Shown here: in pieces, positions 35,389 to 50,852 of the stretch | Layout of the letters: each line of letters opens with the position of its first letter | How positions within the stretch are numbered: position 1 is the first letter of the stretch | Origin: Chryseobacterium sp. 52 | GTDB lineage: Bacteria; Bacteroidota; Bacteroidia; Flavobacteriales; Weeksellaceae | DNA length: 64,000 nucleotides | Reading direction: 5' to 3' | Assembly: GCF_002754245.1 (NCBI RefSeq) | Contig: NZ_PEEX01000001.1 | Span: 1,344,001 to 1,408,000, forward strand | Program-made: the position numbers and the translations under genes | Notes under the pieces: generated by a model | The model's input: only the letters and a program-made list of their open reading frames with translations | What the model was told of the DNA's origin: nothing | The model's database searches: none

Positions 35389-36027
35389 ATGATGGAAACT
35401 AGATCCCCATTTTTAGATACTGTTTTTCTGCTTCGTAAGAGCGGACACCTTACTGTATTTTCAAATTTACAGGAGATCTCCAAAAAAGAAGAGCAGGAAG
35501 CAGGAGATTATTTTGAAACAGAATTTGAAAAAGAAAGGCTTGAATTTTTGTCAGATGGGATCTCTTGTCATAAAGAGGCAGCAGTGTGGGCGGCAAAAGT
35601 TTTGTACCACAGTGCACAGCTCTATCTTATCCGGGAAAACACAGCAAAAGATCTGGATAAACTGATCCCGAAATTAAAAATAGATCCGGATGTTTCTTCT
35701 GTTTTGTCAGCCGACCTGTCACTGAGATTTCTGCCCCAGATTGCTTCTGTATTGCAGATGGCAGATCCTCATGATCCTTTGGTTAAGATTCTTGAAGATA
35801 TTCTCATTCAGTTTCATTATTCCGGAATAGGATATCCTCTTAATCTGGAAAAAGTCAACTGGGAGAAGGAACTGAAAGACAAAACCTATCGTAAATTATA
35901 TCTCGAAAGAATTGTAGAAAAGAAAGCCTACGAACTGGCGGAAATCCCTTATATTAATCAATTGCTTCTTGCAGATTTTGGGCTGTATAAAGATACTTAT
36001 TGGAGAGAATTAAAAAATAATAACTGA
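35389..36027 (+). CDS. bpX0-like helical subunit of MoxR-vWA-bpX system
   Basis: A 212-residue helical protein (HKEAAVWAAKVLYHSAQLYLIREN; FLPQIASVLQMADPHDPLVKILEDI) with no enzymatic motif. It is the first gene of a six-gene operon whose next member is a MoxR ATPase, which is where bpX0-type helical subunits sit in the ternary systems described by Aravind and colleagues. Assignment rests on position and length. Confidence 0.6.
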   Translation: MMETRSPFLDTVFLLRKSGHLTVFSNLQEISKKEEQEAGDYFETEFEKERLEFLSDGISCHKEAAVWAAKVLYHSAQLYLIRENTAKDLDKLIPKLKIDPDVSSVLSADLSLRFLPQIASVLQMADPHDPLVKILEDILIQFHYSGIGYPLNLEKVNWEKELKDKTYRKLYLERIVEKKAYELAEIPYINQLLLADFGLYKDTYWRELKNNN

Positions 36028-36037
36028 AGAATAATCA

Positions 36038-40259: not shown

Positions 40260-41955
40260 AATAAAACCTTTCCCGAAAAACACGTATCCTAAGAAAGGAC
40301 TCTTGATCAAAGACCCTTCACCCCTGATGTGGCTTCATGAAATGGAAGTGTTGGGCATACCTCTCAATAGAGTAAAATCCTATGCTATTCCGGCAAATGA
40401 ACCTAATGTTCTCTATGGTTGTCTGCTTGTATTTTATGATGAGGCTCCGCAGGAAATTGGAAAAAATGCCTATTTCCAGTGTGTTGATGATCATCTTTTT
40501 ATTCCTGAAAATACCGTGTTTTATCCTAAAATCAATCCGGAAGACTGGCAGTCTGTCGGTTCACGGTTTGTTATCATGCATCCGGCATTCGGATGGGTAA
40601 AGCTGTCAGAGGAAATAGACTGGATTTCTGTGATCGAGGAACCCGAAATATCAGTAGAAAAAGTCAGAAAACCATCGAACGGGGTGAAAATTATTCAGCA
40701 CATTGAAAGTTTTGCCGTTGAGATGGATGACGAAAAACTTTTAGCAACCCTCCAACAACCCAGAAACGAAGAAGAATGGATGAAAAACCTGCCTTTCGAT
40801 CTGAAAAAGGTGATGGCCGGGAACAAAAAAGAAATTGAAAAATATTTAAAATATATAGAACAATATCCAGACAGAGCCGTAGAATTAGGTGTTCCACTGG
40901 ATATCATGGGGACTTCCCGTGGCGACGGCTTTGGAAACTTCACTTTTGGAGATAGCTGGCTAAGCACACTGTTTGGAGGCTCCGGAGGTAAAAAAGAAAC
41001 GGCAGGAACCCGAAATTTCCGCAGAATATTCTGGGCTGTTGTTGTGATTGCGATACTCCTCAGAATCTTTATGCCTTCAGATAAAGACAGAACGCAGAAA
41101 GAAGACTTTCTTGTTTCATCCGGTAAAATCATGAACGGCAAGGAAAAAACCAATGCTGATATGATTGCTTATCAATCCGGAGTTACAGATATTGATATGA
41201 AAATTGATTCTATTTACGGAAGAGAAAGAAAAAGTCTTTCCCGTGAATATTCTGCTGCAGGCGCGGCCATGTCAAAAGACCAGAACGAAAGAGAGAAATA
41301 TAAAAAATCAGGAGGCAGAAATCTCGGAGAAGTTGGAAATGAAATCGAAAAACTCAATACCAGAGAACAGAACAGCAGAGATTCCCTTAAAATCGTTTAT
41401 TCAAAAAAAATCACAAAACATCTTGTTCAGCAGGAACAAACCATGAAACGTAAGATTTCAGATTCACTGAAACAATACAGCAAAGGAAAACCTGTAAATG
41501 GCGAGATCGTAAAATTTGTTTTAAAGAAAAAGCAGGTTCTGATGGCAGATTCTCTCGGGCGTCTTTACGGGACACTTGATATGATGAATCTTCCTCCGGC
41601 TCAAGTTAAAGGTTCAAAAACAGGAACCCTTGAATCAGGTGAAAATAAATCCAGCGAAAAAGCTAAGGTTTCGGATATCCTGTATCTGGTGATTTTTATG
41701 TTCGGAGCTGTGGGGATTTATTCCTTCATCTTCAAAAGAAAATCATTAAACCTTGGCGGAGAGCATGTACCACTTTGGGTGAAGATGATTTTATCAGTTG
41801 TTCTGGTTTCCATGCTTGTTTACCTGTTTTATCCTTTAATAAAAATGTTCGGGTACAACTGGTTTGTATGGATTCTGGTGATCTGTGTAATCCTTCTTCT
41901 GTATCGCCTGTTCAGCGAAGACAAAACCATTTTAAATGCCGAAGACAATGAATAA
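40249..41955 (+). CDS. Membrane bpX-type subunit, 568 aa
   Basis: I take the ATG at 40249 (MEFRIKPFPKNTYPKKG), which overlaps the vWA stop by 11 nt. The N-terminal 230 residues are a soluble bpX-like domain. Then come one membrane segment (FWAVVVIAILLRIFM, about 265), a charged region of about 190 residues, and three more membrane helices at the C-terminus. It would anchor the system to the inner membrane. Confidence 0.6.
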   Translation: MEFRIKPFPKNTYPKKGLLIKDPSPLMWLHEMEVLGIPLNRVKSYAIPANEPNVLYGCLLVFYDEAPQEIGKNAYFQCVDDHLFIPENTVFYPKINPEDWQSVGSRFVIMHPAFGWVKLSEEIDWISVIEEPEISVEKVRKPSNGVKIIQHIESFAVEMDDEKLLATLQQPRNEEEWMKNLPFDLKKVMAGNKKEIEKYLKYIEQYPDRAVELGVPLDIMGTSRGDGFGNFTFGDSWLSTLFGGSGGKKETAGTRNFRRIFWAVVVIAILLRIFMPSDKDRTQKEDFLVSSGKIMNGKEKTNADMIAYQSGVTDIDMKIDSIYGRERKSLSREYSAAGAAMSKDQNEREKYKKSGGRNLGEVGNEIEKLNTREQNSRDSLKIVYSKKITKHLVQQEQTMKRKISDSLKQYSKGKPVNGEIVKFVLKKKQVLMADSLGRLYGTLDMMNLPPAQVKGSKTGTLESGENKSSEKAKVSDILYLVIFMFGAVGIYSFIFKRKSLNLGGEHVPLWVKMILSVVLVSMLVYLFYPLIKMFGYNWFVWILVICVILLLYRLFSEDKTILNAEDNE

Positions 41956-42967
41956 ACAGAAATTTATAGACAAATTCCTGATTGCATTTATGATCCTTGC
42001 GGTGTTTAAGATCATTGGGATTGCAGCACAACTGTTTCACGAAAGCTTTTGGAGTGTAGTGGGGACATTGGGGGTTTTCCTTTTGGTAGCTTTTATTATC
42101 ATGATCATAATTACAGCTTTAAAGGATAAAGAACAGAATAGAAAAAACTCTGGCAGAAGAGGTTCAGGAGGCGGGAATTTTTATCTTGAAACAACATTAT
42201 TTGACAGGATCCGAAGCAAATACGAAGAGCTTGCTGAGAAATACATTGCTGAAAAGGATTATAAAAAAGCAGCAAAAGTATATATGAATCTTCTTCAGGA
42301 CAATTTCCGTGGGGCAAAAACGCTGGAAAACGGAGGTTTCTACAATGAAGCCGCAGCAGTGTATCTTAAAAAATTAAACAATAAGTCAGAAGCCGCATCC
42401 TGCTACGAGAAAGCAAAGCAGTACAAAAAAGCAATTGATCTGTATAAAGAAATGCAGCAGAAAGAAAAAGTAGGAGACCTTTACATCCATATGAATGATC
42501 ATAAAAGTGCCCATCATTATTATCAGATGGTGGTAGATGATTATACTGCCAACAGTCAGATGGTAAAGGCTTCGCTGATATACAGCAAGAAAATGGAACA
42601 GCCGGAGGAAGCTCAGAAAATACTGCTGAAAGGTTGGGACGAAGATAAAGACGCATTCAACTGCCTGAATAATTATTTTGCCAATGTCTTTGATATCAAA
42701 AAACTGGAAACCCAAATTCAGGGACTCTATCAGAAAACACCTTCCTATAAAAAGGTGATCTACTTAGAAGCTATGAAGCATGAGTTTAAAAAAGATCCTA
42801 AGTTACAGGCTGTAACCCGAAATATTGCTTACGAAATTATCGCAGAAAAAGTAGGTACACGGTCTGAGATCATTAATGAACTGAAGCATTTCAACCCTGA
42901 TGATCCGGTGATTCTAAAAGATATTTCAAGGTTTAAAACCGGAAGGAATAAGATGTTAAGGAATTAA
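41936..42967 (+). CDS. Membrane-anchored TPR-like bpX-type subunit, 343 aa
   Basis: Two hydrophobic helices at residues about 14-33 and 38-60, then from about 85 a run of TPR-like helical hairpins (AEKDYKKAAKVYMNLL, GFYNEAAAVYLKKL, SEAASCYEKAKQYKKAIDLYKEM). The start may instead be the ATG at 41948, whose codon overlaps the upstream stop. Last gene of the six-gene operon; a cytoplasmic adaptor on the membrane is the likely role. Confidence 0.65.
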   Translation: MPKTMNKQKFIDKFLIAFMILAVFKIIGIAAQLFHESFWSVVGTLGVFLLVAFIIMIIITALKDKEQNRKNSGRRGSGGGNFYLETTLFDRIRSKYEELAEKYIAEKDYKKAAKVYMNLLQDNFRGAKTLENGGFYNEAAAVYLKKLNNKSEAASCYEKAKQYKKAIDLYKEMQQKEKVGDLYIHMNDHKSAHHYYQMVVDDYTANSQMVKASLIYSKKMEQPEEAQKILLKGWDEDKDAFNCLNNYFANVFDIKKLETQIQGLYQKTPSYKKVIYLEAMKHEFKKDPKLQAVTRNIAYEIIAEKVGTRSEIINELKHFNPDDPVILKDISRFKTGRNKMLRN

Positions 42968-43082: not shown

Positions 43083-43146
43083 AGGGAGCAAAAGTATTAT
43101 TTTCATTGCTGAAAAACAATTTTTCATATCTTTGCGCCAGAAAATT

Positions 43147-43275
43147 ATGACACTACAAAGAGCACATATCAATGTAAATCTATGCGATAGCCCTTCAATA
43201 AAAGGATTATTCGGATACGAATGGATGATATGGAATGAGGCGAAATGTGCTTGCTTTGAAAATTATTTACAATAA
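43147..43275 (+). CDS. Mini-ORF 1, 42 aa
   Basis: A 42-codon frame with its own promoter-like upstream (TATCTTTG about 20 nt before the ATG) and a strong hairpin 30 nt behind its stop. The peptide contains GLFGYEWMIWNEAKCACFENY, Trp- and Cys-rich. It belongs to no family I recognise. The promoter-ORF-terminator design suggests an independent small gene or a structured RNA. Confidence 0.45.
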   Translation: MTLQRAHINVNLCDSPSIKGLFGYEWMIWNEAKCACFENYLQ

Positions 43276-43304
43276 ACCCGTAAGAATTTAAACAAAATAC
43301 CGCA

Positions 43305-43332
43305 GAAACGCCTCGAGATATCGAGGCGTTTC
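43305..43332. terminator. Perfect 12-bp hairpin
   Basis: GAAACGCCTCGA and TCGAGGCGTTTC pair perfectly around GATA. It lies 30 nt after mini-ORF 1 and probably ends that transcript, although the following T-run is interrupted. Confidence 0.7.
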
Positions 43333-43468
43333 TTGTGTTTTAGGCCATAAATTATTTAGAATGATAAAAAATAACCATAAAAACGAAAAATTTTTAATTA
43401 ACAATGCAAATTTAATACGATAAATAAGAGTGATAAGTAACCCGATGAGAGACAGTCATTTAGGTATT

Positions 43469-43655: not shown

Positions 43656-43772
43656 ATGAAACAATTACATAACATATCTAATCAGTATTCGAGACTACAC
43701 GGACTGGATCCGAAGGGAGGATTATGTATTCTTGATAGTGAATTTATAGATAAAAGGTGCTTATATACGTAG
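43656..43772 (+). CDS. Mini-ORF 2, 38 aa
   Basis: A 38-codon frame preceded by a TACTTTG -7-like box about 70 nt upstream and followed by a strong terminator. The peptide (MKQLHNISNQYSRLHGLDPK, ending DKRCLYT) resembles nothing I know. Its layout parallels mini-ORF 1. Could be a leader peptide for the tRNA array downstream, though a terminator intervenes. Confidence 0.4.
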   Translation: MKQLHNISNQYSRLHGLDPKGGLCILDSEFIDKRCLYT

Positions 43773-43802: not shown

Positions 43803-43833
43803 AAAGCGCCTCCCGAAAAGAGGCGCTTTTTTT
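43803..43833 (+). terminator. Rho-independent terminator before the tRNA array
   Basis: AAAGCGCCTC and GAGGCGCTTT pair around a 7-nt loop, followed by T7. It is only 3 nt before the first array tRNA, so read-through or its absence decides whether mini-ORF 2 transcription enters the array. Confidence 0.85.
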
Positions 43834-43835: not shown

Positions 43836-43907
43836 GGTTTCTTTAGCTTATTTGGTAAAGCGTCGGTCTGTGGAACCGGAGAACAGGGTTCGATCCCCGG
43901 AGATACC
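43836..43907 (+). tRNA. Array tRNA 1, His (GUG)
   Basis: Anticodon arm TCGGT-CTGTGGA-ACCGG, D-arm GCTT/AAGC, T-arm GTTCGATCCCC with one mismatch. In one alignment G43836 pairs with C43907, the G-1:C73 pair typical for His; the acceptor has one U-U mismatch. CA follows the discriminator. Confidence 0.8.
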
Positions 43908-43915
43908 CAAGTCAT

Positions 43916-43989
43916 AATCTCATAGCTCAACAGGTTAGAGCACCGGTCTTTTAAACCGGGGGTTGAAGGTTCAATTCCTTCTGGGATTA
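43916..43989 (+). tRNA. Array tRNA 2, Lys (UUU)
   Basis: Acceptor AATCTCA/TGGGATT, extended by an outer T-A pair; anticodon arm CCGGT-CTTTTAA-ACCGG; T-arm GAAGG/CCTTC. Starts with A instead of the usual G. Discriminator A then CA. Confidence 0.88.
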
Positions 43990-43995
43990 CAAAAC

Positions 43996-44069
43996 AATTC
44001 TGTAGCTCAATTGGATAGAGCGTTGGTTTTCTAAACCGAAGGTTAGAGGTTCGATCCCTCTCAGAATTA
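43996..44069 (+). tRNA. Array tRNA 3, Arg (UCU)
   Basis: Acceptor AATTCTG/CAGAATT perfect, anticodon arm TTGGT-TTTCTAA-ACCGA, T-arm AGAGG/CCTCT. Begins with A. Spaced 6 nt from tRNA 2. Discriminator A then CA. Confidence 0.88.
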
Positions 44070-44076
44070 CACAAAA

Positions 44077-44148
44077 GGTCTATTGAGGTAAAGGCTAACC
44101 TGCCCGACTGTCTCTTGGGTACTGCGGGTTCGATTCCCGCATAGACCG
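44077..44148 (+). tRNA. Array tRNA 4, Asp (GUC)
   Basis: Acceptor GGTCTAT/ATAGACC and T-arm GCGGG/CCCGC perfect. Anticodon arm CCCGA-CTGTCTC-TTGGG gives GUC, but position 37 is U where a purine is the rule. D-arm AGGT/ACCT. Discriminator G (as in Asp) then CA. Confidence 0.85.
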
Positions 44149-44152
44149 CAAA

Positions 44153-44210
44153 GGTTCACGGAAAATTTCAGCTCCGACTGTCTCTCGGAAAAGAAGATGA
44201 AAGTGAATCT
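44153..44210 (+). ncRNA. Array element 5: T-arm-less Asp-like RNA (GUC)
   Basis: Only 58 nt. Acceptor GGTTCAC pairs fully with GTGAATC (one G-U), and the anticodon arm TCCGA-CTGTCTC-TCGGA has the same loop as tRNA 4, including U37. In place of variable loop and T-arm there are only about 15 purine-rich bases (GAAAAGAAGATGAAA), with no TTCG loop. The D-region is weak. It starts 4 nt after tRNA 4 and looks like a reduced partner of it. Confidence 0.75.
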
Positions 44211-44216
44211 GCAAAA

Positions 44217-44288
44217 CTGGAAAGATAACGGTGGTTGTTTACCCGCCTTGGACGCGGGAGGTCATAGGTTCGAATCCTATTTTCCAGA
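44217..44288 (+). tRNA. Array tRNA 6, Pro (UGG)
   Basis: Acceptor CTGGAAA/TTTCCAG, anticodon arm CCCGC-CTTGGAC-GCGGG, T-arm ATAGG/CCTAT, all perfect. The D-arm is irregular (TAAC/GTTTA). Unlike its neighbours, a full CCA follows the discriminator A. Confidence 0.85.
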
Positions 44289-44296
44289 CCAATTTT

Positions 44297-44368
44297 GCTC
44301 CATTCGTCTAACGGCCAGGACGCCTGCCTTTCGAGCAGATGATAAGGGTTCGATTCCCTTATGGAGTA
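44297..44368 (+). tRNA. Array tRNA 7, Glu (UUC)
   Basis: Acceptor GCTCCAT/ATGGAGT, D-arm GTC/GAC as in bacterial Glu tRNAs, anticodon loop CTTTCGA (UUC), T-arm AAGGG/CCCTT. Its last 25 nt are identical to those of array tRNA 13. Discriminator A then CA. Confidence 0.88.
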
Positions 44369-44374
44369 CAAAAA

Positions 44375-44455
44375 GTGAATAGTCAATAGTGAATTTTGTT
44401 TCGCAAGTAAATGTTAAATATTGATAGTCAAAGAGATTGATCATTGACTATTCAC
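44375..44455. repeat. Inverted repeat IR1 between array blocks
   Basis: GTGAATAGTCAAT (44375-44387) and ATTGACTATTCAC (44443-44455) are exact reverse complements enclosing 55 AT-rich bases. Related sequences recur in the other long spacers of the array. Confidence 0.8.
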
Positions 44456-44467
44456 AAAATAAAAAAC

Positions 44468-44541
44468 GATTTCGTAGCTCAATTGGTTAGAGTGTCGGTC
44501 TGATACACCGGAGGTTGAAGGTTCGAGTCCTTCCGAAATTA
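44468..44541 (+). tRNA. Array tRNA 8, Ile (GAU)
   Basis: Acceptor GATTTCG/CGAAATT (one G-U), D-arm GCTC/GAGT (one G-U), anticodon arm TCGGT-CTGATAC-ACCGG, T-arm GAAGG/CCTTC. Looks fully canonical. Discriminator A then CA. Confidence 0.9.
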
Positions 44542-44546
44542 CAAAT

Positions 44547-44618
44547 GATTTTGTAGCTCAATGGTAGAGCAACGGCCTGTTAAGCCGAAGGTTGAAAGTT
44601 CGAATCTTTCCAGAATCG
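44547..44618 (+). tRNA. Array tRNA 9, Asn (GUU)
   Basis: Acceptor GATTTTG/CAGAATC, D-arm GCTC/GAGC, anticodon arm with loop CTGTTAA and one A-A mismatch at its base, T-arm GAAAG/CTTTC. Discriminator G, as in bacterial Asn tRNAs, then CA. Confidence 0.9.
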
Positions 44619-44649
44619 CAGATAACTAAATGTTAATTGTTTCAATAGA

Positions 44650-44726
44650 GAAGAAAAAAGGTGTGTCAAGAGCAGAAGATCTTTACGCCAAATATGGAAA
44701 ATACCGACAGCCTTTTTCTTTTTTTT
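44650..44726 (+). ncRNA. Array hairpin element H1
   Basis: Non-tRNA element: GAAGAAAAAAGGTGTGTC pairs (one bulge) with GACAGCCTTTTTCTTTT, closing a loop with core AGAGCAGAAGATCTT. The 3' arm ends in a long T-run, so the stem can double as a terminator. Same design as H2-H4. Confidence 0.7.
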
Positions 44727-44808
44727 AGAAGTTAGAGGGTAGAAATTAGAAGGGGTGTAGATTCACTATCAACTATCAACTATCAATGATCATTTATTAA
44801 TCACATCT

Positions 44809-44890
44809 GATGGTTCGCCGAAGTGGAAGAGTCGGGGCTGTCTGCAAAACCGTTGCACACGCTGAGTGGGTTTGAATCCCATAGCCATCT
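44809..44890 (+). tRNA. Array tRNA 10, Cys (GCA) with long variable arm
   Basis: Acceptor GATGGTT/AGCCATC, anticodon loop CTGCAAA (GCA) on a stem with one mismatch, T-arm GTGGG/CCCAT. The variable region TTGCACACGCTGA is class II in length, although Cys tRNAs normally have a short one; the body (CGCCGAAGTGGAAGAGTCGG) is nearly that of array tRNA 11 (Tyr). Discriminator U, as in Cys. Confidence 0.75.
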
Positions 44891-44917
44891 CAAATAACTA
44901 AAATGAGATTAGTTCCG

Positions 44918-44994
44918 GAGAAAAGTAAAAGTTTGTCGAGCGTAGAAGTTCTTATATCAAACTAAAAAAATAAAGACAAGCTTTGTTTTTCTTC
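44918..44994 (+). ncRNA. Array hairpin element H2
   Basis: GAGAAAAGTAAAAGTTTGTC pairs with GACAAGCTTTGTTTTTCTTC; loop core GAGCGTAGAAGTTCTTATATC. Almost identical to H3 (45089-45166), including the AAACTAAAAAAATAAA part. Confidence 0.75.
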
Positions 44995-45015
44995 ACAAAA
45001 AAAATTAGAAATAGC

Positions 45016-45040
45016 CGGAAGTCATCAGTTGGCGGATAGC
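45016..45040 (+). pseudogene. Possible truncated Tyr-type tRNA 5' fragment
   Basis: CCGGAAGT-CATCAGTTGGCGGATAG resembles the first 26 nt of array tRNA 11 (CCGGAAGTGCGCCGAAGTTGG), but no anticodon or T-arm follows. Weak evidence. Confidence 0.3.
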
Positions 45041-45088
45041 TATCATGTGTCAAAACATCATTTATTATTTATAAAATTAGTTAGTTCA

Positions 45089-45166
45089 GAAGAAAAAATA
45101 AAAGTTTGTCAAGCGTAGAAGTTCTTATATCAAACTAAAAAAATAAAGACAGGCTTTGTTTTTCTT
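45089..45166 (+). ncRNA. Array hairpin element H3
   Basis: GAAGAAAAAATAAAAGTTTGTC (plus strand 5' arm) pairs with GACAGGCTTTGTTTTTCTTC. Loop core AAGCGTAGAAGTTCTTATATC as in H2. The changes relative to H2 (AAGC/GAGC, GACAGG/GACAAG) keep the stem: a U pairs with G or A. Confidence 0.78.
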
Positions 45167-45227
45167 CACAGAGGGATTAGAAATTAGAAAATTATCCATG
45201 ACTAATTACTTATTGCTCATCATAACC

Positions 45228-45311
45228 GGAAGTGCGCCGAAGTTGGAGAGTCGGGGCAGACTGTAACTCTGTTGCTTCATTGCTGAGTAGGTTCGAATCC
45301 TGCCACTTCCA
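45228..45311 (+). tRNA. Array tRNA 11, Tyr (GUA)
   Basis: Acceptor GGAAGTG/CACTTCC perfect, anticodon arm GCAGA-CTGTAAC-TCTGT, class II variable arm TTGCTTCATTGCTGA as expected for Tyr, T-arm GTAGG/CCTGC. Discriminator A then CA. Confidence 0.9.
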
Positions 45312-45317
45312 CAAAAA

Positions 45318-45388
45318 CCGCTGATAATGTAACGGCAGCATGCAGGAAAAGTACTCTTGTTGTTCAGGTTCGATTCCTGGTCAGTTGG
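45318..45388 (+). ncRNA. Array element 12: Gln-like RNA with abnormal anticodon loop
   Basis: D-arm ATGT/GCAT, anticodon 3' strand TCTTGTTGTTCAGG and T-arm follow those of array tRNA 17 (Gln), but the loop reads AAAGTAC instead of CTTTGAC: U33 is lost and the nominal anticodon would be AGU. Acceptor has one mismatch. No CA after the discriminator. It is probably not decoded as a normal tRNA. Confidence 0.65.
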
Positions 45389-45396
45389 TTTAAAAC

Positions 45397-45468
45397 GCTC
45401 TGTTAGCATAGCGGTAAGTGCATCCGGCTTTCTACCGGACGACAAGGGTTCGATTCCCTTATGGAGTA
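45397..45468 (+). tRNA. Array tRNA 13, Glu (UUC), second copy
   Basis: Acceptor GCTCTGT/ATGGAGT pairs only with three G-U wobbles; anticodon arm TCCGG-CTTTCTA-CCGGA perfect, with U37; T-arm AAGGG/CCCTT. The 3' 25 nt equal those of tRNA 7 while the 5' half differs, as if the 3' half had been converted. Discriminator A then CA. Confidence 0.82.
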
Positions 45469-45472
45469 CAGA

Positions 45473-45558
45473 TGTGAATGGTCAAAATTCAATAATGAAT
45501 ACATAATACCATGAAAGTTCAGATTGAGAAAATACAATTGATCTACTGATCATTCACA
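45473..45558. repeat. Inverted repeat IR2 between array blocks
   Basis: TGTGAATGGTCA (45473-45484) and TGATCATTCACA (45547-45558) pair with one G-U. Same family as IR1. Confidence 0.7.
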
Positions 45559-45564
45559 GAAAAG

Positions 45565-45648
45565 CAGGAAAGAGAAAGGTTTGTCAAGCGCAGAAGATCT
45601 TACAGACACAAACTAACAGGCATAGTTTTATACAGACAGACCTTCCTC
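45565..45648 (+). ncRNA. Array hairpin element H4
   Basis: AAGGTTTGTC (45576-45585) pairs with GACAGACCTT (45635-45644); loop core AAGCGCAGAAGATCTTACAGAC. The more distal loop differs from H2/H3 but core and stem position are kept, with compensating changes (GGTT/GACC). Confidence 0.72.
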
Positions 45649-45656
45649 CAACCTTA

Positions 45657-45720
45657 ATAATGAGAATGCAATTGTGAATAAAACAAATTTTTAAATTACT
45701 AATTGCCGATTACTCATTAT
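45657..45720. repeat. Inverted repeat in long array spacer
   Basis: ATAATGAG and CTCATTAT form the outer stem, GCAATT and AATTGC the inner one. It precedes tRNA block IV. Confidence 0.6.
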
Positions 45721-45731
45721 CTATAAATTTT

Positions 45732-45805
45732 GCGGGAGTGGCGGAACTGGCAGACGCACTTGATTTAGGCTCAAGATATTGAGGGTTCGAATCCCTTTTC
45801 CCGTA
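45732..45805 (+). tRNA. Array tRNA 14, Leu (UAG) with short variable loop
   Basis: Acceptor GCGGGAG/TTCCCGT (two G-U), body TGGCGGAACTGGCAGACGC as in Leu tRNAs, anticodon arm CTTGA-TTTAGGC-TCAAG. The variable region is only ATATT, although Leu should have a class II arm. Discriminator A then CA. Confidence 0.85.
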
Positions 45806-45810
45806 CACAG

Positions 45811-45884
45811 GTCTCTCTATTCCAATTGGCAGAGAAAACGGCTTTAAACCCCGTAAAGTCCCGGTTTGAATCCGGGGAGAGATA
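45811..45884 (+). tRNA. Array tRNA 15, probable Leu (UAA), short variable loop
   Basis: Acceptor GTCTCTC/GAGAGAT, T-arm CCCGG/CCGGG perfect. Anticodon arm ACGGC-TTTAAAC-CCCGT with one C-C mismatch gives UAA; other registers are possible. Weak 3-bp D-arm. Short variable loop AAAGT. Discriminator A then CA. Confidence 0.7.
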
Positions 45885-45892
45885 CAAATAAA

Positions 45893-45965
45893 GGATCAGT
45901 GGTGTAGAAGGTCTGCACATTTGTCTGAAAAGCAAAGGGGAACCGTTCAATTCGGTTTTGATCCA
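45893..45965 (+). tRNA. Array tRNA 16, Phe (GAA)
   Basis: Acceptor GGATCAG/TTGATCC, D-arm GTGT/GCAC, anticodon arm TTTGT-CTGAAAA-GCAAA, T-arm AACCG/CGGTT with TTCAATT loop. Discriminator A then CA. Confidence 0.85.
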
Positions 45966-45973
45966 CAAAAAAA

Positions 45974-46046
45974 TGATTCATAGTGTAATTGGTCAGCACA
46001 CAAGACTTTGACTCTTGTTGTTCAGGTTCGAGTCCTGATGAATCAA
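45974..46046 (+). tRNA. Array tRNA 17, Gln (UUG)
   Basis: Acceptor TGATTCA/TGAATCA, D-arm GTGT/GCAC, anticodon arm CAAGA-CTTTGAC-TCTTG, T-arm TCAGG/CCTGA. Parent-like sequence of the altered element 12. Discriminator A then CA. Confidence 0.9.
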
Positions 46047-46053
46047 CAAAAAT

Positions 46054-46124
46054 ACTCTGATAGTGTAATGGTAGCATCTCAGTCTCCAAAACTGATGGTA
46101 TCGGTTCGAGTCCGGTTCGGAGTG
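46054..46124 (+). tRNA. Array tRNA 18, Trp (CCA)
   Basis: Acceptor ACTCTGA/TCGGAGT (one G-U), D-arm GTGT/GCAT, anticodon arm TCAGT-CTCCAAA-ACTGA, T-arm ATCGG/CCGGT. Discriminator G, as in bacterial Trp, then CA. Last element of the array. Confidence 0.88.
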
Positions 46125-46140
46125 CAAAAAGTGAGTGATC

Positions 46141-46226: not shown

Positions 46227-46712
46227 ATGGAAACGCAACAAGAAGTATGGCAGAATATGAATGGGAAATTTTTCCAGAAACCTATCATCCAATTGGTAGA
46301 AGAAGCCATTATCCGTGAATTAGCTAATGGGCACCGCCTGAAAGTATGTGTGGGCTCAGATTCCCACGTTTATGGTGAAGCGATCAGCTATGCTACGGCA
46401 GTAGTATTTGTACGTGAGGGAAAAGGAGCGTTTACCTTTATCAGAAAAGACAGAGAAATACAGAAGATCAGTATCAAAGAACGAATGCTGAATGAGGTCA
46501 ACAGATCTGTAGAAATTGCTTACGCTATCTGTGCCGTTCTGGATGCTTATGGTGTGGAAATGGAGGTGCACGCAGACATTAATACCGACCCGGATTTCAA
46601 GTCAAATACAGCATTGAAAGATGCTATGGGATATATTCTGGGAATGGGATATGTGTTTAAAGCAAAGCCTTATGCATTCGCAAGCTCCAATTGTGCTGAT
46701 ATGATGGTTTAA
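46227..46712 (+). CDS. RNase H-like protein, YkuK family (DUF458)
   Basis: A 161-residue protein with the YkuK pattern: KVCVGSDSHVYGEAISYATAVVFV (first strand with the catalytic-type Asp), Glu in the NEVNRSVEIAYAI helix, Asp in EVHADINTD and GYILGMGYVFKAKPYAFASS at the end. YkuK has an RNase H fold of unknown substrate. Starting 100 nt after the last array tRNA, it is likely read with it. An RNA-processing role is inferred. Confidence 0.85.
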   Translation: METQQEVWQNMNGKFFQKPIIQLVEEAIIRELANGHRLKVCVGSDSHVYGEAISYATAVVFVREGKGAFTFIRKDREIQKISIKERMLNEVNRSVEIAYAICAVLDAYGVEMEVHADINTDPDFKSNTALKDAMGYILGMGYVFKAKPYAFASSNCADMMV

Positions 46713-46759: not shown

Positions 46760-47131
46760 ATGGAAATGACCAAAAGATTATTATTTCTGGATGATATAAG
46801 ATATCCAATTGAGGCCTATCATTATACCAGACAGGATGTCTTTCTCAGAAAAGACTGGCATATTGTAAGGAATTACGAACAGTTTGTCAACAGAATCCTG
46901 GAAAAAGGACTTCCGGAAATGATATCTTTTGACCATGATCTTGCAGATGTGCATGATCTGAAACCTAATTCTGAGGAATACACTGAGAAAACAGGCTATG
47001 ACTGTGCCAAATGGCTGATTGAATATTGTATGGATAATTATTTAGACTTACCAAAATTCTATTGTCATTCCATGAATCCGGTGGGCAAGAAGAATATTCT
47101 AAGCCTTTTGGAAAATTTTAAACAACTGTAA
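46760..47131 (+). CDS. Cyclic-phosphate-processing receiver domain protein (cREC)
   Basis: A 123-residue receiver-like fold with RLLFLDDIRYPIEAY at the start, MISFDHDLADVHDL in the middle, GYDCAKWLIEY and FYCHSMNPVGKKNI at the end. This is the cREC pattern (LDDxR, SFDHDL, H-S-x-N-P-x-G) defined in RNA-repair operons, where it is proposed to open or process 2',3'-cyclic phosphates on cleaved RNA. It lies 47 nt after the YkuK gene. A deleted second copy follows it. Confidence 0.82.
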   Translation: MEMTKRLLFLDDIRYPIEAYHYTRQDVFLRKDWHIVRNYEQFVNRILEKGLPEMISFDHDLADVHDLKPNSEEYTEKTGYDCAKWLIEYCMDNYLDLPKFYCHSMNPVGKKNILSLLENFKQL

Positions 47132-47292: not shown

Positions 47293-47883
47293 ATGAAAAA
47301 GATAAGTACATTATTCAAAAAAGATATAAATAATTTAGGAAGAGTAATTAACGAAATTAATCCTGAAAACAACTGGGTTTTGGAGGGGAAAGCTATTGCT
47401 ACTCAAAAATTTGATGGTTCTGCGTGTGCTGTTATCAATGGTAAATTATACAAAAGATACGATGCCAAAAAAGGGAAAACAGCTCCTGCAGGTGCAATCC
47501 CGTGTCAGGAGGCAGATTTTATTACTGGTCATCACCCGCATTGGGTAAAATGTGATATTACTAAAAAAGAGGACAAATATTTTTGGGAAGGATTCAATGC
47601 TTTGGCGGAATCAGGCAAGGTAGAAGATGGTACTTATGAGCTTATTGGTGAAAAGGTACGAAGCAATCCTGAGAATATTAAAGGCCATTTATTAATAAAG
47701 CATGGAAATAAGATTCTGGGGTTAGAAAGTCTGGATTTTGATTTTATCAAAAATTTCCTTAGCAATATTGAGAATGATATGGAAGGTATAGTTTTCCATC
47801 ATATTGCTGATCATCGTATGTGTAAAATCAGGAAATCTGACTTTGGAATACGTAGAAAAACAGTAAAAGAACTCGTTGTTTAA
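47293..47883 (+). CDS. Compact RNA ligase (nucleotidyltransferase fold)
   Basis: A 196-residue protein with all core motifs of the covalent nucleotidyltransferase superfamily: motif I QKFDGSA (Lys39 would be adenylylated), GKLYKRYDAKKG, motif III-like YELIGEKV, motif IV MEGIVFHHI and motif V HRMCKIRKSDFG. It seals RNA with ATP through ligase-AMP and RNA-AMP intermediates. It lacks additional domains, so end-healing must come from neighbours such as cREC, the phosphoesterase and the exonucleases. It is the sealing enzyme of the island. Confidence 0.85.
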   Translation: MKKISTLFKKDINNLGRVINEINPENNWVLEGKAIATQKFDGSACAVINGKLYKRYDAKKGKTAPAGAIPCQEADFITGHHPHWVKCDITKKEDKYFWEGFNALAESGKVEDGTYELIGEKVRSNPENIKGHLLIKHGNKILGLESLDFDFIKNFLSNIENDMEGIVFHHIADHRMCKIRKSDFGIRRKTVKELVV

Positions 47884-47946: not shown

Positions 47947-48891
47947 ATGATACAGGCAGAGATAAAAAGTCTTTTGAGAGAAGACATCAGCATAGTAATA
48001 AAAATAGCCAATTCAGGAAAACATTATTTGTGTGACTGCGGTGAAGCCAGTCAGCTGACGGTAAAAGAAATACAGTCGGTTTCAGCAATATTCATCAGTC
48101 ATACCCATATTGATCATTTTTCAAATTTTGACGGAATTTTCAGACATCAGATCGGCAGCGGAGAAAAAGTTGTGATCTGCGGACCGAAAAATATCCATCA
48201 TCAGATTGAAGCGAGGTTAAAATCTTACACATGGAATCTCATTGATGAAAATGCGATTGAATATGAGATCCGGGAGATTGTTTCTCCGGAGGAAATTAAA
48301 GTGTATACCATCCGTCCGCCTCACTGGAACCTGGAATGGGTAAAAACTCAGAATTTTCTTTTCGAGGACGAGCATGTAAAAGTAAATTTTGCAATTCTTG
48401 ACCATAAAACAGACTCCATCGCTTATCTGTTCAGTGAAAAAGATTCCATCACTTTTAATGGAGAGGCTTCCGGCTTCAGGAAAGGAAAATGGATCAGCGA
48501 ACTGAAAACAGCATTTGAAAATAACGATGAGGATAAGGAAATTGAGATTGAAGGAACCACTTACAAATCTTCTGATCTCTTTCATTTACTAACCAATAAT
48601 CCCGGTTACAGGCTTGGTGTAATTATGGATCATGCGGTGGATGAACAGAATTATGAGAAGATAAAGACTGTTTTTAAAGATGCAGATATGGTTTATATCG
48701 AGACATTTTATAAAGATACAGATCAGGAATTTGCTAAAAAAAACTATCACAGTTTTGCCTCTGCATCAGGAAATATGATGAAAATCTGTGAGGTAAAAGA
48801 AGCAGTACCGATTCACTTTTCAAGAAGATATACGGAAAGTGATGTTATTGAAATTGAAACTGCTTTCTACAAGGCGTTTCGCGGAAATTAA
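47947..48891 (+). CDS. RNase Z-like metallo-beta-lactamase nuclease
   Basis: A 314-residue MBL protein. HTHIDHF (residues 52-58) is the HxHxDH metal site; VIMDHAVDEQNYEKI carries a further metal Asp, and the end HSFASASGNMMKICEVKEAVPIHFSRRY mirrors the HS-x-A...H-F-S-x-R-Y region of tRNase Z. tRNase Z cleaves tRNA precursors after the discriminator base. It differs from housekeeping RNase Z in having a shortened start and an inserted acidic segment at about 175-205. Next to a tRNA array it is the natural candidate for 3' maturation or trimming of the tRNA-like RNAs. Confidence 0.72.
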   Translation: MIQAEIKSLLREDISIVIKIANSGKHYLCDCGEASQLTVKEIQSVSAIFISHTHIDHFSNFDGIFRHQIGSGEKVVICGPKNIHHQIEARLKSYTWNLIDENAIEYEIREIVSPEEIKVYTIRPPHWNLEWVKTQNFLFEDEHVKVNFAILDHKTDSIAYLFSEKDSITFNGEASGFRKGKWISELKTAFENNDEDKEIEIEGTTYKSSDLFHLLTNNPGYRLGVIMDHAVDEQNYEKIKTVFKDADMVYIETFYKDTDQEFAKKNYHSFASASGNMMKICEVKEAVPIHFSRRYTESDVIEIETAFYKAFRGN

Positions 48892-49075: not shown

Positions 49076-49642
49076 ATGAAACCAAATATATTTTTTACAG
49101 CTGACCATCATTTTGGTCATACCAATATTATAAAATTTTCAGACAGGCCCTTCGCATCTTTGGAACAGATGAATGAAGAACTGATCAAAAGATGGAATGA
49201 AAAGATAGGTACCAATGACACGGTCTACCATCTTGGCGACATCAGTTTAGGAAAGCCCGATTTCACCAAAGAAATTCTTGACAGACTGAACGGTAAGATC
49301 CATTTGATCAGAGGAAATCATGAAGGGGCAGCATTGACCTATCCCAAACGATTCGAATCCATAAGAGACTATCATGAGCTGAAAATTGATGAACCGGAAA
49401 ACAGTAACGGCAAGCAGAAAATTATTCTCCTGCATTACGCCATGCGCACATGGAACGGCTCACACCGCGGAGTCTGGCAATTATACGGTCATTCACACGG
49501 AACACTGCCCGATGATGAGACGGCTTTAAGTTTTGACGTAGGCGTAGACTGTCATGATTTTTACCCGATTTCATACGAAGATGTGAAAGAACTGATGAAA
49601 CGAAAAAAATGGTCACCACCATTTGGACCTCGAGAAGAATAG
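49076..49642 (+). CDS. Calcineurin-like metallophosphoesterase
   Basis: A 188-residue protein with the full two-metal motif set: ADHHFGHTNI, YHLGDIS, LIRGNHE, LLHYA and YGHSHG. Members of this compact group hydrolyse phosphomonoesters or cyclic phosphodiesters, including 2',3'-cyclic ends. In this operon it could remove cyclic or 2'/3' phosphates before ligation, which is inference. Confidence 0.85.
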   Translation: MKPNIFFTADHHFGHTNIIKFSDRPFASLEQMNEELIKRWNEKIGTNDTVYHLGDISLGKPDFTKEILDRLNGKIHLIRGNHEGAALTYPKRFESIRDYHELKIDEPENSNGKQKIILLHYAMRTWNGSHRGVWQLYGHSHGTLPDDETALSFDVGVDCHDFYPISYEDVKELMKRKKWSPPFGPREE

Positions 49643-49730
49643 GGAGCTATACACAAGAAGTAATGAGTGGCAGTTATAGTAATCATTAATGAATTCTACA
49701 CGACTACTTTTTACATTTTATAAAAAAACA

Positions 49731-50276
49731 ATGAACACAACAAACGAAATATTAATTATCGACCTGGAAGCCACCTGTTGGGAAAACGACAGAATTCCCA
49801 TCGGGCAAAAAGTTGATATTATAGAAATAGGGATCTGCAAGTTGGATTTACAGTCAAAAACCATTTCCCAAAAACAAAGCATTTATGTAATTCCCGAAAG
49901 ATCGGAAATCAATCAATTCTGTACCGGATTGACGGGAATTACTCCGCAACTGATAGACGATAAAGGAATCTATTTTGAAGAAGCCTGTGAGAAAATTAAA
50001 GAAGAATATCATTCAATGCCACTTACCTGGGCAGGGTATGGAAACTTTGATAAAGAGCAGATTTTTGAACAATGTGACTGGCTCGGAATTGAAATCCCTT
50101 TTTCTTATGAATATCTGAATATCATGGAAGAGTTCAGAAGCCATTTCAGACTTCAAAAAATGATTGGCTTGAAAAGAGCCCTTTATCATCTGAAAATGGA
50201 TTTTGAAGGAAACCATCACAGCGGAGCAGACGATGCTTATAATGCGGCCAAAATTTTACAGAAGATTTTGGAGTAA
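49731..50276 (+). CDS. DEDDh 3'-5' exonuclease, ERI-1/KapD type, copy 1
   Basis: 181 residues from the ATG at 49731 (a longer frame begins at 49689). Exo I: IIDLEATCW; Exo II: WAGYGNFDKEQIFEQC; Exo III: HHSGADDAYNAAKIL, with the His and Asp of the DEDDh class. The phrase IDLEATCW is typical of 3'hExo/ERI-1 relatives that trim RNA 3' ends. Its paralogue follows after 24 nt. Confidence 0.88.
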   Translation: MNTTNEILIIDLEATCWENDRIPIGQKVDIIEIGICKLDLQSKTISQKQSIYVIPERSEINQFCTGLTGITPQLIDDKGIYFEEACEKIKEEYHSMPLTWAGYGNFDKEQIFEQCDWLGIEIPFSYEYLNIMEEFRSHFRLQKMIGLKRALYHLKMDFEGNHHSGADDAYNAAKILQKILE

Positions 50277-50300: not shown

Positions 50301-50852
50301 ATGAAAACAACAGAAAATATATTAATTATAGACCTGGAAGCTACCTGCTGGGACGACAGACCACCCAGGGGCCAGGAAAGTGAGATCATTGAGATCGGAG
50401 TGTGTATGATGAATGCCACAACCGGTAAGATCTCAAAAAATGAAGGCATTCTTGTGAAGCCACAATACTCAAAGGTGAGTCCTTTCTGTACTGAGCTGAC
50501 TTCTATCACGCAGTCTATGCTGGATTCAGAGGGAATCATGCTGGAAGATGCACTCGATATTCTGAGAGCAGAATACGATTCTGAAGATCTCACCTGGGCG
50601 AGCTACGGAAATTATGATCTGAATATGCTGCAAAATCAGGCCAGAAGATTCAATGTAGATTATCCTTTGAGCGATGATCATATCAATGTGAAAACATTGT
50701 TCGGGGAACTGCATCCCACCGTTCGTAAAAGTGTCGGAATGGCAAGAGCTTTGGGAGAACTGAATTTTACCCTTGAAGGTACGCACCACAGAGGGGTAGA
50801 CGATGCGAAGAATATTGCAAAGATTCTGCATTGGTGTCTTCAAAAAGCTTAA
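50301..50852 (+). CDS. DEDDh 3'-5' exonuclease, ERI-1/KapD type, copy 2
   Basis: 183 residues, the same motifs as copy 1: IIDLEATCW, WASYGNYDLNML, HHRGVDDAKNIAKIL. The two are roughly half identical and arose by tandem duplication, so they may act on different ends or form a pair. Confidence 0.88.
   Translation: MKTTENILIIDLEATCWDDRPPRGQESEIIEIGVCMMNATTGKISKNEGILVKPQYSKVSPFCTELTSITQSMLDSEGIMLEDALDILRAEYDSEDLTWASYGNYDLNMLQNQARRFNVDYPLSDDHINVKTLFGELHPTVRKSVGMARALGELNFTLEGTHHRGVDDAKNIAKILHWCLQKA

What the first reader, a model, noticed from the sequence alone, without database searches (positions are those of the whole stretch)
43836..46124. Array of 18 tRNA and tRNA-like genes placed between a MoxR-vWA-bpX operon and RNA-processing genes
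Eighteen cloverleaf or near-cloverleaf genes lie on one strand with 4-8 nt gaps inside blocks (1-7, 8-9, 10, 11-13, 14-18) and longer structured spacers between blocks. The next genes encode an RNase H-like protein, cREC, RNA ligase, RNase Z-like protein, phosphoesterase and two 3'-5' exonucleases. Known families: cREC and RNA ligase are RNA-repair components, and phages use tRNA arrays to replace tRNAs destroyed by the host. Inference: this is a chromosomal defence or repair system that couples a replacement/decoy tRNA set to repair enzymes.
Basis: partly seen in the sequence, partly recalled or inferred. Interest (0 to 1): 0.95.

Follow-up and report, generated by a model that had tools for sequence, protein, structure and literature searches.

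The report
tRNA array behind all-amino-acid leader peptides
A bacterial chromosome carries a row of extra, altered tRNA-like genes behind two tiny genes whose peptides together contain all twenty amino acids, an arrangement that likely lets the cell notice when any one tRNA runs short and would then switch on spare tRNAs and RNA-processing genes.

Summary
In detail: ARAGORN tRNAs at 43836-46125 and three further tRNA-like elements make 18. All 20 isotypes exist elsewhere in the genome, so the array is an extra set. It is near-core in Chryseobacterium (Cys-like gene in 111 of 118 genomes); a YkuK-type RNase H-fold gene follows on the same strand in 111 of 111, whereas this RNA ligase is optional (27 of 118). 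The array keeps anticodons and mostly the cognate discriminators, but its commonest anticodon loops differ from canonical ones at 32, 37 or 38 in 14 of 18 families. It also holds a conserved mini-tRNA and an unclassified hairpin RNA. The main new finding lies upstream: two conserved leader ORFs, each followed by a terminator whose 5' arm can pair with a segment inside the ORF. Here the first peptide uses all 20 amino acids within 26 residues; across 41 loci the two together cover 20 types in 39 and 19 in 2. The likely logic is ribosome-mediated attenuation that senses shortage of any usable tRNA. Whether the RNAs are resistant stand-in tRNAs (preferred) or uncleavable decoys is unsettled.

The parts
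43127..43134 (+). TAnnTTTG promoter-like motif 20 nt before leader 1
   Evidence: TAnnTTTG or TAnTTTG within 70 nt upstream of leader 1 in 41 of 41 loci, 39 of them starting at -20 or -21; for leader 2 in 8 of 41, scattered. The motif as a Bacteroidota promoter is recalled
43147..43275 (+). leader 1 ORF, 42 aa, all 20 amino acids (all by residue 26)
   Evidence: found in 41 of 42 loci in which ARAGORN found a His-like gene
43236..43242 (+). leader 1 segment TGAGGCG complementary to the 5' arm of terminator 1
43304..43333 (+). terminator 1 (13 bp stem, T-rich tail)
43656..43772 (+). leader 2 ORF, 38 aa, 17 amino acid types here (17-20 in relatives)
43755..43762 (+). leader 2 segment AGGTGCTT complementary to the 5' arm of terminator 2
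43803..43829 (+). terminator 2 (stem), six bases before the first array gene
43836..43908 (+). tRNA-His-like (GTG)
43916..43990 (+). tRNA-Lys-like (TTT)
43996..44070 (+). tRNA-Arg-like (TCT)
44077..44149 (+). tRNA-Asp-like (GTC), U at 37
44150..44216 (+). mini-tRNA: closing stem plus anticodon arm with loop CTGTCTC, no D or T arm
44217..44291 (+). tRNA-Pro-like (TGG), A at 37, unusual D arm
44297..44369 (+). tRNA-Glu-like (TTC)
44468..44542 (+). tRNA-Ile-like (GAT)
44547..44619 (+). tRNA-Asn-like (GTT)
44651..44715 (+). HP hairpin RNA copy 1 (ends approximate)
44809..44891 (+). Cys-like element (GCA), long variable arm, T73
   Evidence: relatives
44921..44989 (+). HP hairpin RNA copy 2 (ends approximate)
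45094..45162 (+). HP hairpin RNA copy 3 (ends approximate)
45228..45312 (+). tRNA-Tyr-like (GTA)
45318..45388 (+). tRNA-like element with A instead of U at position 33
45397..45469 (+). second tRNA-Glu-like (TTC), U at 37
45569..45647 (+). HP hairpin RNA copy 4 (ends approximate)
45732..45806 (+). tRNA-Leu-like (TAG), short variable arm
45811..45885 (+). tRNA-Leu-like (TAA)
45893..45966 (+). tRNA-Phe-like (GAA)
45974..46047 (+). tRNA-Gln-like (TTG)
46054..46125 (+). tRNA-Trp-like (CCA)
46227..46712 (+). YkuK-family RNase H-fold protein (PF04308), constant neighbour in the genus
46760..47131 (+). cREC (PF20274)
47293..47883 (+). RLIG1-like RNA ligase, optional
47947..48891 (+). RNase Z-like metallo-beta-lactamase (below NCBIfam cut-offs)
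49076..49642 (+). calcineurin-like phosphoesterase
49689..50276 (+). exonuclease, RNase_T family (nearest NCBIfam KapD, below cut-off)
50301..50852 (+). exonuclease, RNase_T family (ERI1-like)
35389..42967 (+). bpX4-bpMoxR-bpX2-bpX0/X1-bpX3-TPR operon
54541..54684 (+). two degenerate tRNA-like elements 5' of Band-7
55129..56646 (+). Band-7/SPFH protein

Best explanation
Two short leader ORFs, whose peptides together contain all twenty amino acids and each of which ends before a terminator, lie upstream of an array of 18 tRNA-like genes and likely act as tandem attenuators that would switch the array on when any usable tRNA runs short. Shown: the ORFs, the terminators, the ORF segment complementary to each terminator's 5' arm, their conservation, the extra tRNA set with kept anticodons and mostly kept discriminators but altered loops, and the constant YkuK/RNase H-fold neighbour. 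Inferred: while translation keeps up, the ribosome covers the ORF segment, the terminator forms and the array is off; if the ribosome waits at a codon whose tRNA has been cleaved or is uncharged, the segment is free, pairs with the terminator arm, and transcription runs into the array. Inferred: the RNAs are mainly stand-in tRNAs whose altered loops make them poor substrates for anticodon nucleases. The neighbouring ligase, cREC, phosphoesterase, RNase Z-like and exonuclease genes would mend, mature or clear cleaved tRNAs. Elements that are unlikely to decode (mini-tRNA, A33 element) would be baits or inhibitors.
For: Leaders: both found in 41 of 42 loci that have a His-like gene. Leader 1 averages 19.0 amino-acid types in the stretch before the pairing segment (29 aa in 35 of 37 distinct ones); random 29-mers of window proteins average 14.3 and reach 19 in 0.1%. 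When columns are shuffled among 37 leader-1 peptides the types before the segment fall to 18.29 from 19.11 (0 of 2000 shuffles reach it; 5 of 2000 over the whole peptide); leader 2 shows this before its segment (2 of 2000) and not over its whole length (1207 of 2000). Terminators follow in 40 of 41 and 41 of 41 loci, with the pairing segment 40 nt (35 of 40) and 27 nt (35 of 41) from the ORF end. With RNA ending at the terminator 5' arm, segment and arm pair in the predicted fold in 38 of 40 and 36 of 41. Flavobacterium has the same layout with different peptides: with a terminator, leader 2 in 26 and leader 1 in 16 of 27 loci. Array: N73 follows the cognate isotype (Cys T 35/35, Asp G 26/26, Asn G 21/21, Trp G 20/21, His C 34/36), and the commonest loop differs at 32, 37 or 38 in 14 of 18 families. 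Partner gene 111 of 111. 20 isotypes exist elsewhere.
Against: No expression data. Pairing segments are short (mostly 6-8 bp) and the finished transcript folds into the terminator, so the switch must be kinetic. Codon-shuffled ORFs reach the same pairing score often enough that only 18 of 40 (leader 1) and 30 of 41 (leader 2) loci are below 5%; in L144 the arm changed and the ORF segment did not. Loci are related, so shuffles overstate significance. Flavobacterium leaders are less complete (14-19 types in about 31 aa). Against stand-in tRNAs: U37 in Asp-like and some Glu-like genes, A33 in one element, the mini-tRNA, N73 departures (Glu-like G in 9 of 45, Phe-like G in 6 of 22), and few or no Ala, Gly, Val, Thr genes. 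Against nuclease evasion: Lys, Asn, Trp and Met loops equal canonical ones. Canonical tRNAs come from this genome only.
Confidence: 0.5

Rival explanations
1. The leaders work as described, but the induced RNAs are decoys: uncleavable tRNA mimics that occupy anticodon nucleases and other tRNA-binding enzymes rather than taking part in translation.
For: The mini-tRNA has no D or T arm, yet its anticodon loop CTGTCTC is invariant in 26 of 26 aligned sequences and its stem keeps pairing through double changes (closing pair AU 17, GC 8). T37 in Asp-like genes (21 of 26) and A33 in one element would be expected to hamper decoding. The same bodies carry different anticodons in different species (Ile/Met, Lys/Ile/Arg). 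The anticodon loop is the best conserved of eight helix and loop regions in 9 of 18 families.
Against: Decoys should copy the canonical loop, but 14 of 18 families differ from it. Cognate discriminators and A20 in Arg-like genes are not needed for anticodon-loop bait. ARAGORN's register gives T37 also in four tandem Leu(TAA) genes outside the island (L037), so T37 alone is weak evidence.
Confidence: 0.3
2. The array makes structural RNAs for a ribonucleoprotein: tRNA-like and HP hairpin RNAs are Y-RNA-like partners of the TROVE/Ro60 and Band-7 proteins of the same island.
For: The only TROVE gene found in the genome starts 559 bp beyond the window; close orthologues occur in 82 of 118 genomes (87 with any match), 79 on the same contig and strand 2.6-25.6 kb downstream of RNH. 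Band-7 has its own tandem tRNA-likes. YrlA of Salmonella has a tRNA-like domain (PMC7790460, passages).
Against: HP hairpins and array persist where no TROVE was found (e.g. L143, L144, L149). No Rfam Y RNA match; YrlA hits are below gathering and lie on tRNAs or tRNA-likes.
Confidence: 0.1
3. The leaders sense general translation arrest (antibiotics, starvation) and the tRNAs merely boost translation afterwards, with no link to tRNA damage, as in the Anabaena trn operon.
For: Uncharged and missing tRNAs stall a ribosome alike; the Anabaena operon of 26 tRNAs is induced by translation-targeting antibiotics (PMC10272220, abstract).
Against: Neighbours are RNA-end processing, ligase and nuclease genes, and loops differ in the manner reported for phage tRNAs proposed to evade anticodon nucleases (PMC10264068, abstract and results).
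Confidence: 0.15
4. An ordinary or phage-derived tRNA cluster, partly decayed.
For: Several elements lack canonical features; tRNA arrays are common in phages (recalled).
Against: Near-core in the genus with a fixed neighbour; helices 98% paired with double changes; conserved leaders and terminators. Phage gene families were not searched.
Confidence: 0.03

Closest known systems
Anabaena trn operon (26 tRNA genes, repressor TrcR; PMC10272220, abstract seen)
   Same: A long operon of tRNAs additional to the housekeeping set, off in normal growth and on under translational stress there; likely the same logic here.
   Different: Controlled there by a DNA-binding repressor, here apparently by leader-peptide attenuation; here linked to RNA-processing genes, with altered loops, a mini-tRNA and hairpin RNAs. 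I did not compare the loops of the Anabaena tRNAs.
Ribosome-mediated attenuators such as trp, his and ilv leaders (recalled)
   Same: Leader ORF, terminator, ORF segment that can pair with the terminator arm.
   Different: Known leaders are recalled to carry runs of one or a few amino acids; leader 1 carries nearly every amino acid.
tRNA array units of mycobacteria and their phages (PMC12803027 passages; PMC5966550 listing)
   Same: Dense arrays of extra tRNAs that differ from the chromosomal copies; anti-defence role suggested.
   Different: In M. avium these lie on plasmids; this one is chromosomal and near-core, with leaders and a fixed neighbour gene.
Phage tRNAs with anticodon-loop changes (PMC10264068, abstract and results)
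   Same: Same anticodons, altered loop positions, Ser represented by GCT only.
   Different: Encoded by the host chromosome, together with RNA-processing genes.
RNA-repair systems with TROVE/Ro or Band-7 and tRNA-like RNA (Burroughs and Aravind 2016; abstract recalled, paper not held)
   Same: Ligase, cREC, phosphoesterase, SIR2, Band-7, TROVE and tRNA-like RNAs in one neighbourhood.
   Different: I cannot tell whether that paper describes this array; leaders, mini-tRNA and HP hairpins are shown here from sequence.
MoxR-vWA-beta-propeller ternary systems (PMC7159879, passages)
   Same: bpX0-bpX4 and bpMoxR are present.
   Different: The paper calls these systems enigmatic, with no conventional effector modules; here they sit beside the array in most genus genomes examined.

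Membership tests
Ribosome-mediated transcription attenuator | Translated leader ORF after a promoter | tested here: inconclusive
   ORF in 41 of 42 loci with a His-like gene; TAnnTTTG-type motif before leader 1 in 41 of 41; synonymous share of single changes 0.30 against 0.19 expected. Translation itself not shown
Ribosome-mediated transcription attenuator | Intrinsic terminator after the ORF | tested here: met
   40 of 41 and 41 of 41 loci; independent scan of the window
Ribosome-mediated transcription attenuator | Alternative pairing of an ORF segment with the terminator arm | tested here: met
   38 of 40 and 36 of 41 predicted folds; ORF and arm changed together in L070, but arm alone in L144
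Ribosome-mediated transcription attenuator | Codons of one or few regulated amino acids | tested here: not met
   18-20 types in leader 1, 17-20 in leader 2: works like an attenuator, but with a many-codon leader
Stress-induced extra tRNA array | Dense array beyond a complete housekeeping set | tested here: met
Stress-induced extra tRNA array | Silent until translational stress | not testable with these tools
   no expression data
Bacterial Y RNA / Ro RNP | Match to Y RNA family models | tested here: not met
   no RF00019 hit at E up to 1; YrlA below gathering
Bacterial Y RNA / Ro RNP | TROVE gene linked | tested here: met
   82 of 118 genomes, 79 linked; here just outside the window
RNA-repair operon | RNA ligase with end-processing enzymes | tested here: met
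   in this window; this ligase in 27 of 118 genomes; a T4 Rnl2-type ligase in some other loci
Known anti-phage defence system | Match to PADLOC models | tested here: not met
   0 of 9 proteins at E up to 0.001

The most novel reading that the evidence does not exclude
This is the first universal tRNA-shortage sensor: tandem leader peptides built as a one-of-each-amino-acid ruler, so that loss of any single tRNA opens an attenuator and releases a whole set of anticodon-loop-altered substitute tRNAs with an RNA-repair kit, a chromosomal immune reserve against anticodon nucleases.
Probability: 0.4. Interest if true: 0.96.

Novelty: new variant of a known kind. Interest (0 to 1): 0.9.

Why it matters
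Known attenuators are recalled to read one or a few amino acids; a leader that reads nearly all would be a general gauge of the tRNA pool encoded in about 40 codons. It would explain how a cell could keep a spare tRNA set silent and release it only when tRNAs are destroyed, would give the bpX/MoxR and YkuK families a testable context, and would place in the host chromosome a strategy proposed so far for phages. It is directly testable with a reporter and single-tRNA depletion.

Tried and rejected
Considered and dropped. (1) Encoded 3' NCA as a special feature: most canonical tRNAs here also end N73-C without an encoded CCA. (2) HP hairpins as Y RNAs: no Rfam match, and they persist where TROVE was not found. 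(3) Ligase as the core partner: only 27 of 118. (4) Array as sole tRNA source: rejected. (5) Missing G-1 in the His-like gene: register ambiguous, not used. (6) Structure of the YkuK protein: mean pLDDT 77.9; the best PDB matches, at E 0.015 or worse, include NurA, RNase H1 and endonuclease V among unrelated folds, none at E <= 0.001, so at most the fold class is supported; the literature places YkuK in a clade with RNases H1 (PMC3985635, passages). (7) RNAalifold inside a script returned no structure for the HP set; pairs were counted directly. (8) Paper searches. One search (leader peptide, attenuation, all 20 amino acids, tRNA) listed 3 papers and (Chryseobacterium with tRNA cluster terms) listed 12 of 57; by title and start of abstract none describes this. 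I read none of the three, and of the twelve only the abstract and outline of one (PMC10272220) and passages of another (PMC12803027). Novelty is therefore not proved.

Full report
Check of the observation. ARAGORN tRNA genes on the + strand between 43836 and 46125; Rfam's tRNA model matches 14 of them above its gathering score. The flanking operons are as described: bpX4, bpMoxR, bpX2, bpX0/X1, bpX3 and a TPR protein upstream, and a YkuK-family RNase H-fold protein (RNH), cREC, RNA ligase, metallo-beta-lactamase, phosphoesterase and two exonucleases downstream. By sequence the ligase resembles solved RLIG1, the lactamase RNase Z (below the NCBIfam cut-offs) and the second exonuclease ERI1.

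The array is an extra set. The window lies in a 5.30 Mb single-contig genome with 92 tRNA matches and seven 16S genes.

Conservation. Among 118 genomes drawn from the genus, the Cys-like element matches in 111, RNH in 114, cREC in 102, of which a few are weak or partial, a strong bpMoxR (E at most 1e-90, counted by eye, one of them partial) in 108, and this ligase in 27. In 111 of 111 genomes with the Cys-like element RNH lies downstream on the same contig and strand, 290 to 2187 bp away (start to start). Four genomes lack RNH, and all four lack the Cys-like element (Fisher p = 4.6e-6, not corrected for relatedness); the link with bpMoxR is weaker (p = 8e-4). Three genomes have RNH without a Cys-like match; in two RNH lies within 1 kb of a contig start, and the third (G068) keeps a His-like gene and two hairpins before RNH. 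In 20 further loci, chosen mostly for lacking cREC or a strong bpMoxR, tRNA genes (3 to 19 per locus by ARAGORN) precede RNH in 20 of 20. In the family, RNH matches in 154 of 296 genomes and 7 of 33 genera; I fetched 8 of the 11 matching genomes outside the genus (five genera) and G068, and tRNA genes precede RNH in 9 of 9. Organism names come from a scan with the ligase: Chryseobacterium, Flavobacterium and others, 63 loci. Many Flavobacterium loci carry smaller arrays next to ligase, Band-7, phosphoesterase, exonuclease and bpX genes, with no RNH match in the stretch held. Of the 63 loci 15 gave no tRNA, four of them Flavobacterium and several of them short contigs.

The wider island. Some loci have a T4 Rnl2-type RNA ligase, in L154 beside the RLIG1-like one and elsewhere without it (recognised by sequence; Pfam run on one, L140: RNA_ligase plus T4_Rnl2_C), R2K ATP-grasp proteins, or a 2H match below the cut-off. 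The only TROVE (Ro60-type) gene found in this genome starts 559 bp beyond the window end. Close orthologues occur in 82 of 118 genomes (87 with any TROVE match), 79 of them on the same contig and strand 2.6 to 25.6 kb downstream of RNH, the other three on different contigs. SIR2, cREC, T4-like ligase and, occasionally, calcineurin-like phosphoesterase together are described as an RNA-repair neighbourhood of phages (PMC9503650, passages).

What the elements look like. Across 114 distinct elements 98.0% of helix cells form standard pairs with 783 double-sided changes, against 65.5% and 210 in shuffles (the alignment was fitted to the cloverleaf model, which favours it). The next counts take all ARAGORN tRNAs of 39 Chryseobacterium loci, a few of them outside the arrays. 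Discriminator bases mostly follow the cognate isotype: Cys T in 35 of 35, Asp G 26 of 26, Asn G 21 of 21, Trp G 20 of 21, His C 34 of 36; departures include Glu-like G in 9 of 45 and Phe-like G in 6 of 22, where canonical tRNAs have A. Arg-like genes keep A20 (A20 as an Arg identity element is recalled). The anticodon is kept and, with few exceptions, U33; the commonest loop differs from the canonical one of this genome at 32, 37 or 38 in 14 of 18 families, while Lys, Asn, Trp and Met do not differ (read). Asp-like genes have T (21) or G (5) at 37 and never A; Pro-like genes have A37 in 33 of 33 and Gln-like genes A37 in 27 of 27, where canonical tRNAs have G. T37 is not unique to the array: ARAGORN's register gives it also in four tandem Leu(TAA) genes elsewhere (L037). 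Some bodies carry different anticodons in different species (Ile/Met; Lys/Ile/Arg). In these loci Ala, Gly, Val and true Thr genes are absent or rare.

The mini-tRNA. Between the Asp-like and Pro-like genes lies an RNA with a closing stem and an anticodon arm but no D or T arm. A search anchored on the Asp-like end found it in 28 of 39 loci. In 26 aligned sequences the loop CTGTCTC is invariant, 97.2% of helix cells pair, and double-sided changes (14 cells) exceed all 500 shuffles (mean 5.3), although the number of pairs with such a change (3) does not; the pair closing the loop is AU in 17 and GC in 8 of 25 distinct rows. I left out of that alignment one degenerate copy (L142) and one in another context (L153).

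A hairpin RNA family (HP). Spacers hold 1 to 5 copies per locus of a hairpin with a stem of about 10-14 pairs and a conserved loop (GAGCGCAGAAG followed by T or A and TCTTA): 138 copies, 133 distinct, in 41 of 42 loci scanned. The stem pairs in 92.0% of cells with 91 double changes against 87.8% and 44.7 in shuffles (0 of 500), and 39-59% when slid. In this genome one copy, used as query, matched only inside the array. The motif was not found in the Flavobacterium loci scanned. It does not depend on TROVE: copies persist in genomes where TROVE was not found.

The leaders. Two conserved ORFs precede the His-like gene. Of 48 loci scanned, ARAGORN found a His gene in 42; leader 1 and leader 2 were found in 41 of these. 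The missing one, L176, has similar ORFs upstream of its first tRNA gene, which is not His. Leader 1 here is 42 aa with all 20 amino acids, reached by residue 26; leader 2 is 38 aa with 17 types, and up to 20 in relatives. Together they cover 20 types in 39 loci and 19 in two. Over 39 distinct peptides leader 1 averages 19.4 types (null for 42-mers of window proteins 16.3, reaching 19 in 4.2%); leader 2 averages 18.8 over 41 (null for 41-mers 16.2); Cys is 6.3% of leader 1 against 1.1% of window proteins. Before the pairing segment leader 1 averages 19.0 types; random 29-mers average 14.3 and reach 19 in 0.11%. Leader 2 averages 17.5 before its segment (mostly 33 aa; null for 33-mers 15.1, reaching 18 in 3.4%), so leader 2 is the weaker case. 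Shuffling each alignment column among 37 distinct 42-aa leader-1 peptides lowers the types before the segment from 19.11 to 18.29 (0 of 2000 shuffles reach the observed value), so losses in one column tend to be made good in another; over the whole peptide the effect is weaker (5 of 2000). Leader 2 (23 peptides of 41 aa) shows it before the segment (2 of 2000) and not overall (1207 of 2000). Shuffles ignore kinship. Single codon changes are synonymous in 0.30 (both leaders) against 0.19 and 0.18 expected.

The switch. A terminator follows leader 1 in 40 of 41 and leader 2 in 41 of 41 loci, its 5' arm starting most often 31 nt (32 of 40) and 26 nt (20 of 41) from the first base of the stop codon; an independent scan finds both here, at 43304-43333 and 43803-43829. 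A segment inside each ORF, 40 nt (35 of 40) or 27 nt (35 of 41) from the ORF end, is complementary to the terminator's 5' arm: TGAGGCG and AGGTGCTT. In L070 the ORF segment and the arm carry matching changes; in L144 the arm changed and the segment did not. When the transcript is folded only up to the end of the 5' arm, segment and arm pair in 38 of 40 and 36 of 41 loci; with the 3' arm present the terminator forms (window example). Codon-shuffled ORFs reach the same pairing score in 7.4% (leader 1) and 2.6% (leader 2) of shuffles on average, so the complementarity alone is moderate evidence; its fixed place is stronger. A TAnnTTTG-type motif precedes leader 1 in 41 of 41 loci (39 at -20 or -21) and is scattered before leader 2 (8 of 41), so both attenuators probably lie on one transcript.

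Elsewhere. Flavobacterium loci have two leaders of unrelated sequence in similar places. Counting only ORFs followed by a terminator, and with patterns written, leader 2 is present in 26 of 27 loci searched (AGGTGC, in one GGTGC, against a GCACC(T) arm) and leader 1 in 16 of 27 (one with an unlike arm), with 14-19 and 15-18 types in about 30 aa. L179, from another genus, has 42-aa and 36-aa ORFs with 20 and 19 types that show no evident resemblance to the others. I did not check terminators in L176, L178 and L179.

Reading. A ribosome-dependent attenuator that contains almost every codon class before its pairing segment would open when any one tRNA is missing or uncharged. What it releases is a second tRNA set with unchanged anticodons and altered loops, next to a nuclease-fold protein and RNA-processing enzymes. 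That fits resistant stand-in tRNAs induced by tRNA destruction, as proposed for phage tRNAs (PMC10264068, abstract and results), and has a precedent in the Anabaena trn operon, which uses a repressor (PMC10272220, abstract). The mini-tRNA and the A33 element, and less clearly U37, suggest that not every element can serve translation, so decoys remain a serious rival. RNase H-like YkuK is grouped with RNases H1 (PMC3985635, passages); our model supports at most the fold class.

Limits. No expression data; canonical tRNAs from one genome; null peptides from 32 window proteins; related loci; the 2016 review of RNA-repair systems, which by my recollection of its abstract mentions a novel tRNA-like RNA with Band-7, could not be read.

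Noticed in passing
window 29429-29501, 31862-31933, 32794-32863: Three lone tRNA-like genes between ORFs of SDR, SIR2 and TatD proteins; they share an unusual D arm (TAGTTTAA) and odd anticodon loops. Some Flavobacterium loci have tRNA genes next to SDR and TatD genes too.
   Followed up: partly
window 54541-54684: Two degenerate tRNA-like elements in tandem just 5' of the Band-7 gene; similar pairs occur in several relatives.
   Followed up: partly
window 43361-43520: Further conserved stretches between the two attenuators, readable as short ORFs beginning MKKNNHK and MRDSHLG in relatives; role unknown.
   Followed up: no
G000:C1:1408559-1410073, 559 bp beyond the window end: The only TROVE/Ro60-type gene found in the genome, at the end of the same island.
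   Followed up: partly
L037 (G000:C1:888550-889250), outside the window: Four near-identical tandem tRNA-Leu(TAA) genes with, in ARAGORN's register, T at position 37.
   Followed up: no
window 56998-63570: Two large DUF6493/DUF7824/DUF7825 proteins and a SWIM zinc-finger protein follow Band-7.
   Followed up: no
window 50912-51940: A 342-aa protein with a GyrB-like domain after the RNA-processing genes; a relative occurs in some other loci.
   Followed up: no
window 27250-27981 and 29941-31857: ORFs without Pfam or NCBIfam match near DUF434/DUF5616; the first is kept beside SDR in some Flavobacterium loci.
   Followed up: no
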